DNA from: a virus
DNA: 42,326 nucleotides
Virus record (IMG/VR): IMGVR_UViG_3300050342_000003
Coordinates: 1 to 42,326 of that record
Direction: 5' to 3' (one strand)
Shown in pieces: positions 1 to 39,150 of the stretch (positions within the stretch are counted from its first letter, which is position 1; the number at the start of each line of letters is the position of its first letter). A program made the position numbers and the translations under genes. The notes under the pieces are model-generated. The model did no database searches. It was not told where the DNA came from and saw only the letters and a program-made list of their open reading frames with translations.

Positions 1-285
1 AAACCCAAAATTAGAGCAAAAAGCAAAACCTTGTGGCTGAAAATCAAAACCACAAGCCTAAACTAAACCATAAAAGCTTAAATTTTTCTCGATTTTTCGA
101 TCTTTTTTAACCTCATAACTGCAAAAATTAAGAGCCAAAACCCATAAAAAACAGCCTTTAACCCATAAAAACCCGCAAAGTTCGCAAAATGATTATTTTA
201 CGAACTTTAAAAACGAAAAAACAACTAAAAAATCGCAATTTTTGAGCTTTGAAAATTTAAAAGACTTTTAAATCTTGGGGGAGTA
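1..285. repeat. Terminal direct repeat, left copy
   Basis: Bases 1-285 are identical to 42042-42326. This is either a real direct terminal repeat or the overlap of a circular assembly; 285 bp is longer than usual assembly k-mers. The repeat holds inverted repeats CTTGTGG (30-36) with CCACAAG (50-56) and AAAGTTCG (177-184) with CGAACTTT (201-208), plus a 12-bp direct repeat AACCCATAAAAA at 139-150 and 160-171. No gene is visible in it. Confidence 0.95.
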
Positions 286-363
286 TATAACCCTTATTTT
301 TGGAGTATATAACACTTATTTTGGAGTATATACCCCTTATTTCTGGTGCATAACCCTATTTGG
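280..363. repeat. Tandem 21-22 bp repeats
   Basis: Four adjacent units start at 280, 302, 323 and 345. Each follows GGAGTATATAACCCTTATTTT; the fourth is diverged. The terminal repeat ends six bases into the first unit. They lie in a gene-free zone between convergent operons. An iteron-type replication origin or a terminase recognition site is possible; both are inference. Confidence 0.75.
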
Positions 364-1107: not shown

Positions 1108-1152
1108 TCCACACTTCAAAACATAAAAATTTAATCCTGAAGCTTTACTTCT

Positions 1153-1182
1153 AAATTAGTTCAGTTTAATTTAGTTCAGTTC
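1153..1182. repeat. Paired 15-bp repeat, copy 1
   Basis: Two adjacent 15-bp units, AAATTAGTTCAGTTT and AATTTAGTTCAGTTC. A near-identical pair lies at 2774-2803. Both pairs sit upstream of a leftward promoter (at 1107 and 2725), about 45-50 bp before the -35 box, so a shared activator or operator site is plausible. Confidence 0.55.
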
Positions 1183-1244
1183 AATCAAAGAAAATTTTAG
1201 AGAGCAAAGCAAAGAAAAAAATTGATAAAAGATAAATTATGATA

Positions 1245-2696: not shown

Positions 2697-2725
2697 ATTA
2701 TATCAAAACATTAAAGAAATTTCAA
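2697..2725 (-). promoter_or_regulatory. Sigma-70-type promoter
   Basis: On the minus strand TTGAAA, a 17-base spacer, then TATAAT. Predicted start of transcription is near 2690, reading the genes at 2650-1245. The AAGGTCG element at 2673-2679 falls in the 5' untranslated region. Confidence 0.75.
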
Positions 2726-2773
2726 CTTCAACCTTTCAAACTTAATTTTTGAAAACAATTTCAAAAATGCTCT

Positions 2774-7320: not shown

Positions 7321-7601
7321 AAGAAAGAGCAAAAAGAAAGGAGCAGCAAATTCAAAAACTCCATTATTCGAAGGAAAGACAAGTTATCAAAACATCAATT
7401 TTCAATCAAGCGCAAGAATGGGCTAGACTTCAAGCAGAGCTTGGTCTTCCTGACGATGAAATTGAAAGGCTCATCAAAAAATGGCTTAAAAAACTTTACT
7501 ACGAATACAAACTATGGGATGAAGAATTTGACGAACTTTACTTTCAAAACATCAAAGAAAAAAAAGAAAGGTCAGAATTAAAAAACAAAAATGAAAAATG
7601 A
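7290..7601 (+). CDS. Helical hypothetical protein, 103 aa
   Basis: Almost entirely charged helix (many Lys, Glu, Gln), with a conserved-looking centre AELGLPDDEIERLIKKWL. No known domain. It overlaps its neighbours on both sides (31 bp and ATGA), so it is translated with them. The AAGGTC element of the next gene (7567-7572) lies inside its last codons. Confidence 0.6.
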   Translation: MDNQYSWEQIEERAKRKEQQIQKLHYSKERQVIKTSIFNQAQEWARLQAELGLPDDEIERLIKKWLKKLYYEYKLWDEEFDELYFQNIKEKKERSELKNKNEK

Positions 7602-8041
7602 AAGATGAAAAATTCGAAAAAATCTATGACTTTATAGACGAAGTTATGGATGTCACTGATGATTTGATTGACAAATGGATACTCGATTGGGAAATTGCTG
7701 TTGATTACGAAGCCAGAGAAGAAGTTGAAAAAGAATATGGAATGCCTTGGTGGAAAGTTTTAAGCGGAGACGATGATTATAATCCAGAAAATAACGACGA
7801 AGAAAATGAAAAAATTGTTGAACTTAAAGATTGGAATGATAAGAATTTTAGGTATTTTAAGGTTGTTCCTTCTGAAAAATCTAAATTAGAATTAGGTCTT
7901 CCTAATGATTTTTACTACATCGTTATTGTTGATTTGAAAAGAAATAAGATATCTTGCGATTGTTTGGGTAATTTAACAAATGGTTATTGCAAACATATCC
8001 AAATGGTCGCAGAAAAATTAAAAATTAATTATCGAAAATGA
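7598..8041 (+). CDS. SWIM zinc-finger protein, 147 aa
   Basis: Acidic N-terminal 80 residues, then a C-terminal SWIM finger: C120, C122, C131 and H133 (CxC-x8-CxH). It resembles the SWIM protein at 3675-4109 only in that motif. The gene overlaps the Tas gene by ATGA, so both are made together; a nucleic-acid-binding partner of the Tas ribonucleoprotein is an attractive but untested idea. Confidence 0.72.
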   Translation: MKDEKFEKIYDFIDEVMDVTDDLIDKWILDWEIAVDYEAREEVEKEYGMPWWKVLSGDDDYNPENNDEENEKIVELKDWNDKNFRYFKVVPSEKSKLELGLPNDFYYIVIVDLKRNKISCDCLGNLTNGYCKHIQMVAEKLKINYRK

Positions 8042-8715
8042 AAAAGAAAATAGAAAAAGTTGAATGGACAGAAATTAGAAAAAGAGAAATCAAATATCTC
8101 ATAGGACACTATTACAGAATTCAAAAACACAGGATTGCTATGGGTAACCAAATTTTTGCCCTTAATCAACAGAAAAATCCTGATGCCCCCATTAATCATT
8201 TCTACAAGAGAATTTTGGGGATTGAAAAAGAGATAAAAAAATACCTGAAAAACAGCCTAAAAGGAGTTCCTATATGGGAAGAATGGTTGAAAAAAGTCAA
8301 GGGAATTGGTGAAGTTTTAGGATGTGCTCTAATTGCCTTAATTGATATTAAAAAAGCAAAACACCCCTCAAATATCTGGAGTTATTTTGGATTAGCGCCT
8401 AATCAAAAAAGAAAAAGGGGAGAAAGGGTAAATTATAATCCTTTGGCAAAGACAATTGCTTGGAAAATTGCCGATTGTTTTATCAAGTCGAAATCTCCGT
8501 ATAGAAAGGTTTATGAAGTAAGAAAAGCATACGAACAAGAAAAACATCCTGAATTTACAAAAGGACACATTGATATGAGGGCAAAAAGATATATGGTGAA
8601 AAGATTTCTTGTTGATTTATATGTCAAATGGAGAGAATTAGAAGGATTACCAGTATCAAAGCCTTATGTAGTTGATGTTTTAAAACATCAGATGGAAGAT
8701 ATGATTGTGGAATAA
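8038..8715 (+). CDS. tas: Tas protein: Nop/IS110-C-terminal-like, no nuclease
   Basis: 225 aa. Residues 1-75 are a basic helical region. Residues 83-121 hold the IS110/Nop-type helix-hairpin-helix and pocket motif: KVKGIGEVLG, then LIDIKKAKHPSNIWSYFGLAP. Residues 136-205 are the typical C-terminal helices (LAKTIAWKIADCFIK, RAKRYMVKRFLVDLY). There is no N-terminal DEDD domain, so it is not an IS110 transposase, and no HNH or RuvC domain. A 36-nt-period guide-like array begins 9 bp after the stop. Gene plus array match the TIGR-Tas family, in which a Nop-domain protein binds array-derived 36-nt RNAs to find DNA; without a nuclease, binding or silencing is the likely outcome. Remote homology was judged by eye. 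Confidence 0.82.
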   Translation: MKKKIEKVEWTEIRKREIKYLIGHYYRIQKHRIAMGNQIFALNQQKNPDAPINHFYKRILGIEKEIKKYLKNSLKGVPIWEEWLKKVKGIGEVLGCALIALIDIKKAKHPSNIWSYFGLAPNQKRKRGERVNYNPLAKTIAWKIADCFIKSKSPYRKVYEVRKAYEQEKHPEFTKGHIDMRAKRYMVKRFLVDLYVKWRELEGLPVSKPYVVDVLKHQMEDMIVE

Positions 8716-8723
8716 AATTTTTA

Positions 8724-8867
8724 GCCAAACGAAGGTAGAAAACCTTATCAAACAAGCGAGCCATTAATTTCAAGTAACCCTTAAGTAAATAGCGAGCCAA
8801 ATTTTACCAGAAACCCCGATGAGGTGAGCGAGCCAGAATTATATATCAACCCCAACCTTTCAAGCGA
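8724..8867 (+). ncRNA. TIGR-type guide RNA array, four 36-nt units
   Basis: Units start at 8724, 8760, 8796 and 8832, each exactly 36 nt: GCCA, spacer A (9), loop (9), spacer B (9), AGCGA. Edges between units read AGCGAGCCA three times (8755-8763, 8791-8799, 8827-8835). Loops read AGAAAACCT, AGTAACCCT, AGAAACCCC and ATCAACCCC. Spacer A: AACGAAGGT, TTAATTTCA, AATTTTACC, GAATTATAT. Spacer B: TATCAAACA, TAAGTAAAT, GATGAGGTG, AACCTTTCA. Loop and edge positions are conserved; spacers are not. The outer edges are kept only on the side facing the array. Probably co-transcribed with tas. Confidence 0.85.
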
Positions 8868-8923
8868 AAATTAAAAACCAATGTTAAAATTAAAAAAGTC
8901 GGCATTAAGGTCAATCCTTAAAA

Positions 8924-12185: not shown

Positions 12186-12224
12186 AAACCCCCTGGAAGT
12201 TTTCTCCTCCAGGGGGTTTATTTT
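12186..12224. terminator. Bidirectional rho-independent terminator
   Basis: A perfect 12-bp stem, AAACCCCCTGGA (12186-12197) with TCCAGGGGGTTT (12208-12219), a 10-base loop, and T-runs on both strands. It separates the convergent early-right and late-left operons. Confidence 0.9.
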
Positions 12225-12240
12225 ATGATTAGTTAGGGGT

Positions 12241-12294
12241 TTACCTTGAAGCTTTTTTACCCCTTCTTGCGGAACTTCTTGCTCTTCTTGCCAT
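12241..12294 (-). CDS. Tiny basic peptide, 17 aa
   Basis: Frame MARRARSSARRGKKASR: 9 of 17 residues are Arg or Lys. An AGGTCG element (12315-12320) and AATTAAGAA leader precede the ATG even though they fall inside the end of the holin gene. It would be the last gene of the late operon. A protamine-like DNA-binding peptide is possible; the size makes the call uncertain. Confidence 0.4.
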   Translation of the reverse strand: MARRARSSARRGKKASR

Positions 12295-12301
12295 TTCTTA
12301 A

Positions 12302-12613
12302 TTACTTCTTAATTCGACCTAAAACTCCGTTATAAAGGCTTCTTTTGCCTAAATCCCAAAGTCCACTTGTATAAAGACCAATAAAAACACCAGAGGCAAA
12401 AGCCAATAAAGGATTTTCAATATAGCCGTAAAAATAAGACCAAAGAGCCAAACTAACTCCCCAAAAAACCGAAACTAATGGGGCATAATCATTAAAATTC
12501 TGTATTCTCTTACTTAAAATTCTTTTAACTACTTCTGTCATTCCCATAACTAAAAGGACAACGAAATGAAAACTTAAAAGTTGGTTTGCAGTTAATACCC
12601 AGCTTCCTTCCAT
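12302..12613 (-). CDS. Putative holin
   Basis: 103 aa with about three membrane segments (roughly 12-32, 45-65, 68-90) and a basic C-terminal tail (LGKRSLYNGVLGRIKK), the usual layout of a phage holin. It lies next to the lytic peptidase gene at the end of the late operon. AAGGTCG element at 12635-12641. Holin families are too diverse to name one. Confidence 0.65.
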   Translation of the reverse strand: MEGSWVLTANQLLSFHFVVLLVMGMTEVVKRILSKRIQNFNDYAPLVSVFWGVSLALWSYFYGYIENPLLAFASGVFIGLYTSGLWDLGKRSLYNGVLGRIKK

Positions 12614-12641
12614 TTTTTAGATTTTTTTAATCAACGACCTT

Positions 12642-12776
12642 TTAAAATTGAAAATCCATTTCGCTAAATTCTTCTTCTTCGCTTTCTCTTTCTTCTTCTA
12701 ATTCTTCTTCTTCAGTCTCAACGGGTTTTTCTTCAAGATTTACATCTTCTTCAAAAAGGTATTCTGTATCTACCAT
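12642..12776 (-). CDS. Highly acidic protein, 44 aa
   Basis: Frame MVDTEYLFEEDVNLEEKPVE followed by a run of Glu to the end FSEMDFQF; more than 40 percent acidic. It sits between the peptidase and holin genes with its own GGTCG element (12799-12803) and A-rich leader. Not recognised; a regulator of lysis timing or a DNA mimic is only a guess. Confidence 0.55.
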   Translation of the reverse strand: MVDTEYLFEEDVNLEEKPVETEEEELEEERESEEEEFSEMDFQF

Positions 12777-12794
12777 TTTTCTAAAATTTTTTAA

Positions 12795-14912
12795 TTATCG
12801 ACCAAAAATTTCATTAAATTTTTTAATCGTATTCAAATCTGCTGTTCCAGTTACTAATAACCCATAATTTTTTTGAAAATCTCTAACGGCTTGACGGGTA
12901 ATGCCTCCATAATAGCCCGTACACTCTTGATTAGCAGGAAAATATCCTAACCATTGAAGACCAATTTGAAGTTTTACTACTTCTGATCCTCTATCTCCTA
13001 CATTGAGATAATTAGCATTTATAAACATCTTTGGTTTATTAATCTTTTGAGGTTCGTATTTGAAATCAACAAGATAAACTCCCAAAACAACTCCATTTTT
13101 AAATTGTTCTTCGTTGATAATTCCTAATCCATTAATACCCCAATCATCTCTTCCCCAAGAATTTTGAAAAATTAATGCTTTTTTGCCATTGTAAAGAGTA
13201 TAATCAGTTGCACAGTTATGTACCGCAACATTTTCTGCCATATAAGAATTATCATTTTCAACTTCCAAATTGAAAACTTTTCCGACATATTTTATTTTTT
13301 CTATCTTTTTTATTCTTTTTAATTCACCTATTTTGTGATAAAAGTTCCTCGTTTTTATTTTATTGGCATATGGGGAAATGAGAAAATCGAATCCTCCACT
13401 ACTTTTAATTCTTCTCGTTATGTTATGGGCTGGTTTTCTATGAAAGACACTATAAACCATATTTAGTTTTTGCAAAATAAGTTGTATCTGTAATGCTAAT
13501 TTTTCATCTGAAGTAAAAAGTCTCCAATAAATATTTTGATTTTTATTTCCTATTTGAATGGAACCATCTCCATCTATCCATCCTTCTAATAATGACCTTA
13601 GGACATCTTTAGGTGAGTTAAAAATAATTCTATAATCTAATCTTTTTTTGTTGGGCCTTCCAGCAATTTTAGCAAACCAATTCGCTATTTTTGTGCTATA
13701 AAAAATAACCTGAACTGCTTTATTCCTTGGGGAATAATAAAATTTGGGTTCTAAATTAAATTTACTTTTCATTATTCGAACAACCTTCTCTATTATTTTA
13801 CTATCTTTTTCTCTATTTAAAGAAAATCTAACAGCAGCAAATCCTTTATAATACTTTCCGTTCACAAAATTCCTTTTCAGATTACCATCTGCCAAATAAA
13901 GACCTACTAAATAAGCAATATCTTCATCAAATAAAGCATAATTTCTATCTAATTGGGTTATTGGAGAAGTAAAATTTGCCAACAAAAAGTCTTTTATTTT
14001 CAAATCTTCGGCTTTTTTCCACATAAATCCCCTTGAGATAGCATAATCCTTTCTTACATATTGAGAACCATTTATAACATAAAAAGGATGTTCTGGGGTT
14101 GCTAAAATGGGTCTTATTTGATTCTTGGCATATATTTTAAATAAATAACCCTCATAATCTCTTTCTAAAACCCTACTAACCCTTTGCCATCTTCCTTTGT
14201 GCGTTAAAACATAATCACCTGCTTTAATTTCAGTTATTTTTTTATAACCATTCTTTGTGAGAATTAATGTATCTGGATGGAAACAAATAGCATGTCCGAA
14301 TATTCCGTTTTTATCCAAAACTACTTCAGGTTTAGAAAATCCTCCTTGATTAAATCTCACCCCTAAAAGAATTCCCTTTTTTGTTTGCTCTATTATCCCA
14401 GCAATTACATCAATATCGAGTGGAAGAAAAACATAAGAATTTGCCTTATAAATTTGTGCTACCCATCTAACATTAGGAGTTTCATCATCTCTCCTTCTCA
14501 TTGCGTTTTCATTTAATCCTATAGATGGCATCTGCTGTTCTAAACAGGTTCCTTCTTTTCTGGCAATTTCTAAAGCCTGTAGATAATACATTCCTCCATC
14601 TGGTTCAACATATCCACGAGAATAAATAAATCTTGCAGATAAAATCTCAAATTTCCCCTCTTCTAAATAGTTTTCTATCCCAAGAGCAAGAGCAAGTGAA
14701 TGAGCAACGCAACTTCCCGATGTTGATTGGTTTCTAATTGGTTCAAATTTTCTCCATTCTGATGGTTTTTTCTCAATCCAATTAGGAGATGGATATGATT
14801 TAAAGATTTCTTCTGTGTGATAATTTCTTTCGTCAAGTTGTTCTCTTTCATCTCCAACCCATCCATAACCAAATTGCTCTTTTCTCAAAAATCTTTTGAA
14901 AAATTTCCACAT
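12795..14912 (-). CDS. Papain-like lytic peptidase with intein and PG-binding domain
   Basis: 705 aa. Residues 1-209 and 567-620 form a C1 (papain-like) peptidase: catalytic C68 in STSGSCVAHS, H207 in IFGHAI, N584 in FQNSWG. Residues 630-705 are a peptidoglycan-binding repeat (GDRGSEVVKLQIGLQWLGYF). An intein of 357 residues (C210-N566) splits the peptidase two residues after its catalytic His. After splicing the enzyme is about 348 aa and should cut wall peptides during lysis or entry. No Shine-Dalgarno or AAGGTC element precedes it. Confidence 0.88.
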   Translation of the reverse strand: MWKFFKRFLRKEQFGYGWVGDEREQLDERNYHTEEIFKSYPSPNWIEKKPSEWRKFEPIRNQSTSGSCVAHSLALALGIENYLEEGKFEILSARFIYSRGYVEPDGGMYYLQALEIARKEGTCLEQQMPSIGLNENAMRRRDDETPNVRWVAQIYKANSYVFLPLDIDVIAGIIEQTKKGILLGVRFNQGGFSKPEVVLDKNGIFGHAICFHPDTLILTKNGYKKITEIKAGDYVLTHKGRWQRVSRVLERDYEGYLFKIYAKNQIRPILATPEHPFYVINGSQYVRKDYAISRGFMWKKAEDLKIKDFLLANFTSPITQLDRNYALFDEDIAYLVGLYLADGNLKRNFVNGKYYKGFAAVRFSLNREKDSKIIEKVVRIMKSKFNLEPKFYYSPRNKAVQVIFYSTKIANWFAKIAGRPNKKRLDYRIIFNSPKDVLRSLLEGWIDGDGSIQIGNKNQNIYWRLFTSDEKLALQIQLILQKLNMVYSVFHRKPAHNITRRIKSSGGFDFLISPYANKIKTRNFYHKIGELKRIKKIEKIKYVGKVFNLEVENDNSYMAENVAVHNCATDYTLYNGKKALIFQNSWGRDDWGINGLGIINEEQFKNGVVLGVYLVDFKYEPQKINKPKMFINANYLNVGDRGSEVVKLQIGLQWLGYFPANQECTGYYGGITRQAVRDFQKNYGLLVTGTADLNTIKKFNEIFGR
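13215..14285 (-). mobile_element. Intein with LAGLIDADG homing endonuclease
   Basis: N-terminal splice block begins C210 (CFHPDTLILTKNGYKKI); block B is ATPEHPFYV (271-279). Two dodecapeptides, YLVGLYLADGN (334-344) and LLEGWIDGDGS (441-451), keep their acidic residues, so the endonuclease may be active. C-terminal block FNLEVENDNSYMAENVAVHN ends at N566 and the next residue is Cys, as needed for splicing. Confidence 0.92.
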
Positions 14913-37583: not shown

Positions 37584-39150
37584 AAGTTGTAACCTTAGGG
37601 CCTCCCAATGTATTGCCCTTGAAAAATACATCGAAACCCAAACAAAACATTTCGTGCGCTGACCTTAAATCTGCTTCAGGAGATATATGTAATGGAACTA
37701 TTTTCCCATCAGTTGTGCCCTTTAAAGTCCTTTCTGAAATTTTTGCTGACTTGAGAGCATCTAAAAGTCTTAAAGAACCGCTATCATTAGCATTGAACTT
37801 TGTAATCTTTAAATACTTTTGAACTGCTCGCTTTCTAATTTCGTGTGAAGTTCCTATGTTAACTATGAGGAAGTTAATGCCATTTTTTCTTAATATTGTT
37901 TCAAATGAGTATCCTGCTACTTGTGAAACTTGCCTATGCGCTGGTTCTCCAAAAACTATTTTAGGCTTACCCCAACTTCTCACTTTTTCCAAAAATTCTC
38001 TTTCATACTCATTATACCACATCTTATCATAGGGAATTTCTGGATTTAAAAATGGGAGCCACCAATCTATAAGAAGTTTGTTTGGCATCAATCTTCCGTG
38101 GGCTGCAATAGCAGTAAGGTTTCTAATTTCGTTTTTCAGTGGGTCATATTGGTACCAGCATAAAGCAGTGTAGTCCTGAAAACCAGCAAAGTCTGCTGAA
38201 GCATAAAGTGGCAATTTAGGGTCAAATTCTATTGGTTCTACTTGACATTCATAGGCTTCTGGATAATATCTTAATTTTGGGTCTACATCGTAAGAAAGTT
38301 CTAATTCTGCTAAAAATGATAATGGGTCTTCTTTTCTTAACTCAAATTCCTTTCTATACCATTCTTCATCCTTAAACGGATGCTGTTTCCAGTGTAGGGT
38401 CAAAACTTTGTTTTGTTCCCTCAAATTATCAACAAATCTTTTGAGGAACTGATTTTCTGTTGGAGTTGAGATATAAATCTTAACTTTTGATGTGTCTTGG
38501 CAACTTCTCAAACTTTCTTCCAAATATGGCCAATAGGCTAATTCATCCATTATGACTACTGAAGTTCTATGACCTCGCCCAAAGTTAGGATTAGCACTTT
38601 CTCCATATAATACGCTCCCATTTTCGGGGTTGATTAACTTCATATGATTGTCGTGAAACTTTTTCTTAAAGTTTTTAGGGAAAAGCCATCTCGGTTGAGC
38701 GTAAATAAGATATCTTATCTTCCCAAAAATGCTTGAAATTGCTTTGTTATCAACTTCTGCTTCCTTTCTCGAACCTATTAATGCTGAAAATTTATCAGTA
38801 AAAAGCCAATGATAAACTAACCAATGAACGATAGTCCAAGTAACTCCCATATCCCTTGATTTTTCAATGTAGAGAACATCGCCATCATAAAATGTTTTTT
38901 CGAGCCTGTAAATCAGGTCTGCTTGATAGTCGAAAGGAACAAAAATAATATCTGGTTCCTGAATGTTTCTTGGTTCATAAACCCAACCACAAATTTCTAT
39001 CCATTTATAGATGTTTTTCTGAAATTCCCTGTAAAGATAAACTCTTGCTTCATAAGAAAGTTCAGCAGTTTTCAAAAGTTCAAATCTTGTGTCTATGTAT
39101 TTTTGATACTCATCTGATTTGAGAAATTCCTGAAGTTTTTCGAGGTTCAT
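37567..39150 (-). CDS. Terminase large subunit
   Basis: 527 aa, DNA-packaging motor. ATPase part: Walker A-like IEKSRDMGVTW (95-105, the Arg/Ser form common in terminases), Walker B VVIMDE (198-203) and the coupling motif ISTPTEN (227-233). Nuclease part starts near ASADFAG with D320. It ends in TAG. Start overlaps, as TAATG, a short leftover reading frame (39150-39221) that appears to be the old end of the gene now at 39648-40340. Confidence 0.92.
   Translation of the reverse strand: MNLEKLQEFLKSDEYQKYIDTRFELLKTAELSYEARVYLYREFQKNIYKWIEICGWVYEPRNIQEPDIIFVPFDYQADLIYRLEKTFYDGDVLYIEKSRDMGVTWTIVHWLVYHWLFTDKFSALIGSRKEAEVDNKAISSIFGKIRYLIYAQPRWLFPKNFKKKFHDNHMKLINPENGSVLYGESANPNFGRGHRTSVVIMDELAYWPYLEESLRSCQDTSKVKIYISTPTENQFLKRFVDNLREQNKVLTLHWKQHPFKDEEWYRKEFELRKEDPLSFLAELELSYDVDPKLRYYPEAYECQVEPIEFDPKLPLYASADFAGFQDYTALCWYQYDPLKNEIRNLTAIAAHGRLMPNKLLIDWWLPFLNPEIPYDKMWYNEYEREFLEKVRSWGKPKIVFGEPAHRQVSQVAGYSFETILRKNGINFLIVNIGTSHEIRKRAVQKYLKITKFNANDSGSLRLLDALKSAKISERTLKGTTDGKIVPLHISPEADLRSAHEMFCLGFDVFFKGNTLGGPKVTTYAKRY

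What the first reader, a model, noticed from the sequence alone, without database searches (positions are those of the whole stretch)
8038..8867. Phage-borne TIGR-Tas-like RNA-guided system with a nuclease-less Tas
A Nop/IS110-C-terminal-like protein gene (8038-8715) is followed 9 bp later by four perfect 36-nt units. Each unit has two conserved 9-nt modules (edge AGCGAGCCA, loop AGWAACCCY) alternating with two variable 9-nt spacers. Exact 36-nt period, dual spacers and the adjacent Nop-type protein are the defining traits of tandem interspaced guide RNA systems. There is no HNH, RuvC or DEDD domain on the protein, so it probably binds DNA without cutting, for example to silence host, plasmid or rival-phage genes.
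Basis: partly seen in the sequence, partly recalled or inferred. Interest (0 to 1): 0.96.

Follow-up and report, generated by a model that had tools for sequence, protein, structure and literature searches.

The report
Phage TIGR-TasA RNA-guided DNA-binding system
This phage carries a genuine but already described kind of RNA-guided system: a short array of two-part guide RNAs next to a nuclease-less Nop-domain protein (TasA) that probably binds chosen DNA sites without cutting them; what it targets remains unknown.

Summary
The 225-aa protein at 8038-8715 belongs to the Tas family: NCBIfam TIGR_Tas_endo 4e-56, TasR (9mty) 4e-25 by sequence, and a confident model (pLDDT 88) that superposes on TasH (Z 20.9), TasR (Z 19.9) and IS621 (Z 15.3). 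It covers only the Nop part of TasR (residues 108-319), so it is a nuclease-less TasA. The adjacent array (8719-8871) has four 36-nt units of edge-spacer A-loop-spacer B between truncated edge repeats. It has 15 invariant columns; the most seen in 100 simulated genomes is 10. The array consensus alone, used blind, pulled 55 array-bearing viral loci from IMG/VR, 44 with a Tas gene, always on the same strand. Two kin share the locus: an unlike phage with an intact Tas and 12 units, and a full-length sister phage whose Tas gene is a remnant but whose array is kept. No spacer target was established: near self-targets in 1,170 units match the shuffled null, and one 17/18 match to the sister phage is in the unexpected geometry. 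The system is a new member of a known kind (TIGR-TasA; Faure et al. 2025, PMC12045711). Its role is open.

The parts
8038..8715 (+). tasA: solo Nop-domain Tas protein, 225 aa, no HNH/RuvC/DEDD domain; its ATG overlaps the stop of the upstream gene
8719..8727 (+). 5'-truncated edge repeat TTTTAGCCA (AGCCA half kept)
8728..8754 (+). unit 1: spacer A AACGAAGGT, loop AGAAAACCT, spacer B TATCAAACA
8755..8763 (+). edge repeat AGCGAGCCA
8764..8790 (+). unit 2: spacer A TTAATTTCA, loop AGTAACCCT, spacer B TAAGTAAAT; both spacers identical in sister phage G002, 16/18 in G001
8791..8799 (+). edge repeat AGCGAGCCA
8800..8826 (+). unit 3: spacer A AATTTTACC, loop AGAAACCCC, spacer B GATGAGGTG; 16/18 spacer bases shared with a G002 unit
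8827..8835 (+). edge repeat AGCGAGCCA
8836..8862 (+). unit 4: spacer A GAATTATAT, loop ATCAACCCC, spacer B AACCTTTCA
8863..8871 (+). 3'-truncated edge repeat AGCGAAAAT

Best explanation
A phage-borne TIGR-TasA system. The array just downstream of tasA, probably co-transcribed with it, would be cut within its edge repeats into four 36-nt tigRNAs. A TasA dimer would hold one tigRNA by its AG/CC (box D/box C-like) repeats. The two 9-nt spacers would pair with opposite strands of an ~18-bp DNA site, opening and sharply bending it. With no nuclease, TasA would act by occupancy: blocking transcription or replication of a rival element or a host gene, or shaping DNA. Shown here: protein family, fold, missing nuclease domain, array anatomy, and array-Tas linkage across viruses. 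Inferred from characterised homologues: processing, dimer, tandem-spacer DNA binding. Speculative: the purpose. I put family identity at 0.97, RNA-guided non-cleaving DNA binding at about 0.8, and silencing of a rival or host element as the role at about 0.4.
For: NCBIfam TIGR_Tas_endo 4e-56; phmmer TasR 4.3e-25 and TasH 1.6e-14; AlphaFold2 model pLDDT 87.9 matching TasH Z 20.9, TasR 19.9, IS621 15.3; array statistics; array parts with truncated end edges. The array consensus used alone retrieved array-bearing viral loci of which 44 of 55 hold a Tas gene, 43 of them within 500 bp and 44 of 44 on the same strand, against 11 of 64 loci without an array (Fisher 3e-12). Relatives keep Tas plus array (L002, L004). 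A homologous TasA binds 36-nt tigRNAs in E. coli (PMC12045711).
Against: No transcript, processing or binding data. No rho-independent terminator follows the array directly. Loop 4 departs from the consensus (ATCAACCCC). The array is short (4 units; 5-15 is usual). Sister phage G002 has lost most of tas yet keeps an array, so the system is dispensable at least there. No target was found.
Confidence: 0.8

Rival explanations
1. The protein is an IS110-family transposase or a remnant of one, and the repeats are incidental.
For: Pfam calls it Transposase_20 (7.7e-5); PHROGs calls its family transposase; it superposes on IS621 (Z 15.3).
Against: No N-terminal DEDD domain. It scores far above cut-off for the Tas model and far below it for IS110 (29.7 bits against 140). 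It is closer to TasR and TasH than to IS621. Dual-repeat arrays sit next to it and its relatives.
Confidence: 0.02
2. The system is decaying cargo: array and TasA are inherited but no longer used.
For: Sister phage G002 (about 85% nt identity over most of its length) has an N-terminally deleted, start-less tas remnant. The window array has only 4 units and no terminator.
Against: The window tasA is an intact frame, 89% identical in protein to that of the otherwise different phage G001. In the two units shared with G002 the spacers are more conserved (34/36) than the loops (13/18), Fisher p 0.034, suggesting guide function was kept until recently; the sample is tiny.
Confidence: 0.15
3. TasA regulates the phage's own genes (self-targeting) rather than foreign DNA.
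For: Occupancy without cutting suits gene regulation (inference); no direct evidence.
Against: No spacer pair of the window has a match with 2 or fewer mismatches in its own genome in either paired geometry. Over 100 loci and 1,170 units, near self-matches equal the permuted null in every geometry (only the fetched stretch, up to about 14 kb, was available for most loci).
Confidence: 0.1

Closest known systems
TIGR-TasA (solo Nop domain, dual-repeat array; Faure et al. 2025, PMC12045711)
   Same: Solo Nop-domain Tas protein without nuclease, adjacent dual-repeat array, 9-nt spacers, 36-nt units, edge and loop motifs echo each other, truncated end edges, phage-borne
   Different: Repeat motif is AG...CC (TasR arrays carry UG...CCA); only 4 units; no terminator seen; the upstream gene is a SWIM zinc-finger-like protein rather than the ParB-like partner of some TasA loci
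TIGR-TasR / TasH
   Same: Same Nop fold (Z 19.9 and 20.9) and tandem-spacer array logic
   Different: They carry an N-terminal RuvC or HNH nuclease; the window protein starts where TasR residue 108 does
IS110 / IS621 bridge-RNA recombinase
   Same: C-terminal RNA-binding fold (Z 15.3), Transposase_20 Pfam match
   Different: No DEDD domain; array of short guides in place of one bridge RNA
Box C/D snoRNP Nop5
   Same: Weak fold resemblance (Z 7.5, within the range of chance helical matches), box C/D-like motif logic
   Different: No fibrillarin partner or K-turn RNA recognised; predicted DNA target

Membership tests
TIGR-Tas | Tas-family protein by curated profile | tested here: met
   NF052498 4e-56, 190.4 bits, cut-off 100
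TIGR-Tas | Nop-domain fold as in solved Tas proteins | tested here: met
   TasH Z 20.9, TasR Z 19.9; after the IS110 rows the next is 8.2
TIGR-Tas | Adjacent array of two alternating 8-12-nt repeats with ~9-nt spacers | tested here: met
   same array type beside relatives
TIGR-Tas | Edge and loop repeats share box D/box C-like motifs | tested here: met
   AG...CC in the intact edges and 3 of 4 loops; loop G and CC nearly fixed in 604 units of this array type
TIGR-Tas | Array begins and ends with truncated edge repeats | tested here: met
   TTTTAGCCA and AGCGAAAAT
TIGR-Tas | Rho-independent terminator after the array (typical, not defining) | tested here: not met
   none directly after the array in a simple consensus scan
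TIGR-Tas | Processing to 36-nt tigRNAs bound by Tas | not testable with these tools
   needs RNA sequencing
TIGR-Tas | Tandem-spacer pairing to both DNA strands | tested here: inconclusive
   no convincing target in silico
TasA subtype | No nuclease domain on the Tas protein | tested here: met
   225 aa; aligned TasR range 108..319; no nuclease hit in Pfam
IS110 transposase | N-terminal DEDD catalytic domain | tested here: not met
   aligned IS621 range 124..321 only; IS110 model far below its cut-off
Box C/D snoRNP | Nop5-like protein of the box C/D RNP | tested here: inconclusive
   1nt2 Z 7.5, not above chance for helical models

The most novel reading that the evidence does not exclude
The array is aimed at closely related phages. 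Unit 4 (rc(A)+B, gap 0) matches 17 of 18 bases of an intergenic site of the full-length sister phage G002 (6625-6642), whose homologous site in the window (2721-2738) has 4 mismatches, so the phage would silence a competitor and spare itself.
Probability: 0.05. Interest if true: 0.75.

Novelty: new member of a known kind. Interest (0 to 1): 0.3.

Why it matters
TIGR-TasA is described but its natural targets and purpose are not. This locus adds a complete phage genome with a compact 4-guide array, a sister phage with a broken tas and kept array, and a third phage that shares little but the Tas region: material for a small comparative test. It also shows that general annotation (Pfam and PHROGs 'transposase', NCBIfam 'endonuclease') misnames such proteins.

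Tried and rejected
Self-targets in the window, G001 and G002: none with 2 or fewer mismatches within the same genome. Self-targets in 100 loci: equal to the null; an earlier, smaller version hinted at an excess in one geometry (35 against 18 at 3 mismatches), which vanished with more arrays, different masking and more permutations. Cross-targets among all loci: chance level. Window unit 4 against G002 (17/18): in the rc(A)-B order. From the paper's 8-nt 3' overhang, its C-5 rule and, from memory, the bridge-RNA layout of IS621, the expected order is A-rc(B), although another sentence of the paper on the cut position does not fit that; I treat the match as probable coincidence. Exact unit-3 targets in IMG/VR: 29 against 12 contigs in the two geometries, which collapse to roughly 11 against 7 unrelated sequence groups. 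Host: no Tas relative found in GTDB genomes or plasmids, and only distant terminase matches; host unresolved. SWIM zinc-finger-like neighbour (7598-8041): found only in the sister phage among fetched loci, so not a conserved partner. Array RNA fold: no more stable than shuffles (z -0.52), as expected for dual-repeat arrays. Rfam and tRNA scans: nothing. PADLOC: nothing.

Full report
Observation. The window looks like a complete phage genome: its first ~285 bases recur at the end, from 42042, and it encodes terminase, head, tail, primase/helicase and methyltransferase proteins. At 8038-8715 lies a 225-aa gene whose ATG overlaps the stop of the gene before it. From 8719 to 8871 follow four 36-nt units of edge repeat, 9-nt spacer A, 9-nt loop repeat and 9-nt spacer B. 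Fifteen of 36 columns are invariant across the four units; 100 Markov-simulated genomes reach at most 10. The first edge lacks its 5' half and the last its 3' half, as described for TIGR arrays.

Protein. Pfam finds Transposase_20 and PHROGs a 'transposase' family, but NCBIfam's TIGR-Tas model matches at 4e-56. phmmer finds TasR 9mty at 4.3e-25 and TasH at 1.6e-14. A model built with 20 aligned sequences, the window protein and its viral homologues (pLDDT 87.9), aligns to TasH (Z 20.9, 215 residues, 3.3 A), TasR (Z 19.9, 194 residues, 2.7 A) and IS621 (Z 15.3); the rows after the IS110 family lie at about 8. It matches TasR from residue 108 on, so the nuclease domain is missing: this is the TasA form. 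NCBIfam would name it 'endonuclease', which is misleading here.

Array-Tas linkage. I scanned IMG/VR with the repeat consensus alone. Of the loci fetched, 55 held chains of three or more units; 44 of these hold a Tas protein by a profile search, 43 within 500 bp and all 44 on the array's strand; of 64 loci without chains 11 did. The stricter two-edge pattern also occurs in 37 stretches of GTDB genomes, from Patescibacteria, Dehalococcoidia, several archaea, Planctomycetes and others; those were not checked for Tas, and single-copy ones may be chance. The nearest annotated phage relative is Microcystis phage Mvi-JY20 (29.5% identity), with a 36-nt array and a terminator-like hairpin right after its gene.

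Relatives. G001 (L002; 31.7 kb) shares little beyond this region, with an 89% identical TasA and a 12-unit array. G002 (L003; 41.7 kb) is a full-length sister at about 85% nt identity over most of its length; its tas is a start-less remnant matching only the last ~60 residues, yet four array units remain. Unit 2's spacers are identical in G002 although loop and edge differ; unit 3 shares 16 of 18 spacer bases; G001's last unit is 16/18 like unit 2. Spacers of the two shared units are more conserved than loops (34/36 against 13/18, p 0.034), a small sample. The order of the two shared units is reversed between window and G002, so units shuffle.

Targets. None established. There are no self-targets above chance, no cross-targets above chance, and an IMG/VR-wide search for unit 3 gave only scattered sites in both geometries. 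The single near-match, unit 4 to G002, is 17/18 in the less expected geometry.

Mechanism. By homology with TasA, TasR and TasH (PMC12045711), TasA should hold 36-nt tigRNAs and open DNA at sites paired with both spacers. Without a nuclease the effect would be occupancy. This part is inference.

Verdict.

Noticed in passing
L003 4990-5340 (G002): The full-length sister phage has a deleted, start-less tas remnant but keeps a four-unit TIGR array: an orphan array.
   Followed up: partly
L029, L096 and L079, arrays (units 14, 9 and 11): One spacer pair (GAAGGACAT / TCCTTACAA, within 1 nt) recurs in three otherwise different viral TIGR arrays and is self-complementary (AAGGAC...GTCCTT across the loop), so it may be a conserved array hairpin rather than a guide.
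   Followed up: no
L029, L049 arrays: Two arrays share four units (three exactly) in changed order, pointing to unit shuffling between TIGR arrays.
   Followed up: no
window 38550-38566 versus G002 12197-13365: About 1.2 kb of extra sequence lies inside the terminase gene region of the sister phage: a possible intron, intein or homing element.
   Followed up: no
window 1152-1185 and 2773-2802: 15-bp direct repeats (TAATTTAGTTCAGTT, TAAATTAGAGCAGTT) in intergenic regions, the latter also present in G002; possible operators or iterons.
   Followed up: no
window 280-346: Three tandem ~22-bp repeats (GGAGTATATAACCCTTATTTTT) in a stretch without a listed ORF, next to the terminal repeat.
   Followed up: no
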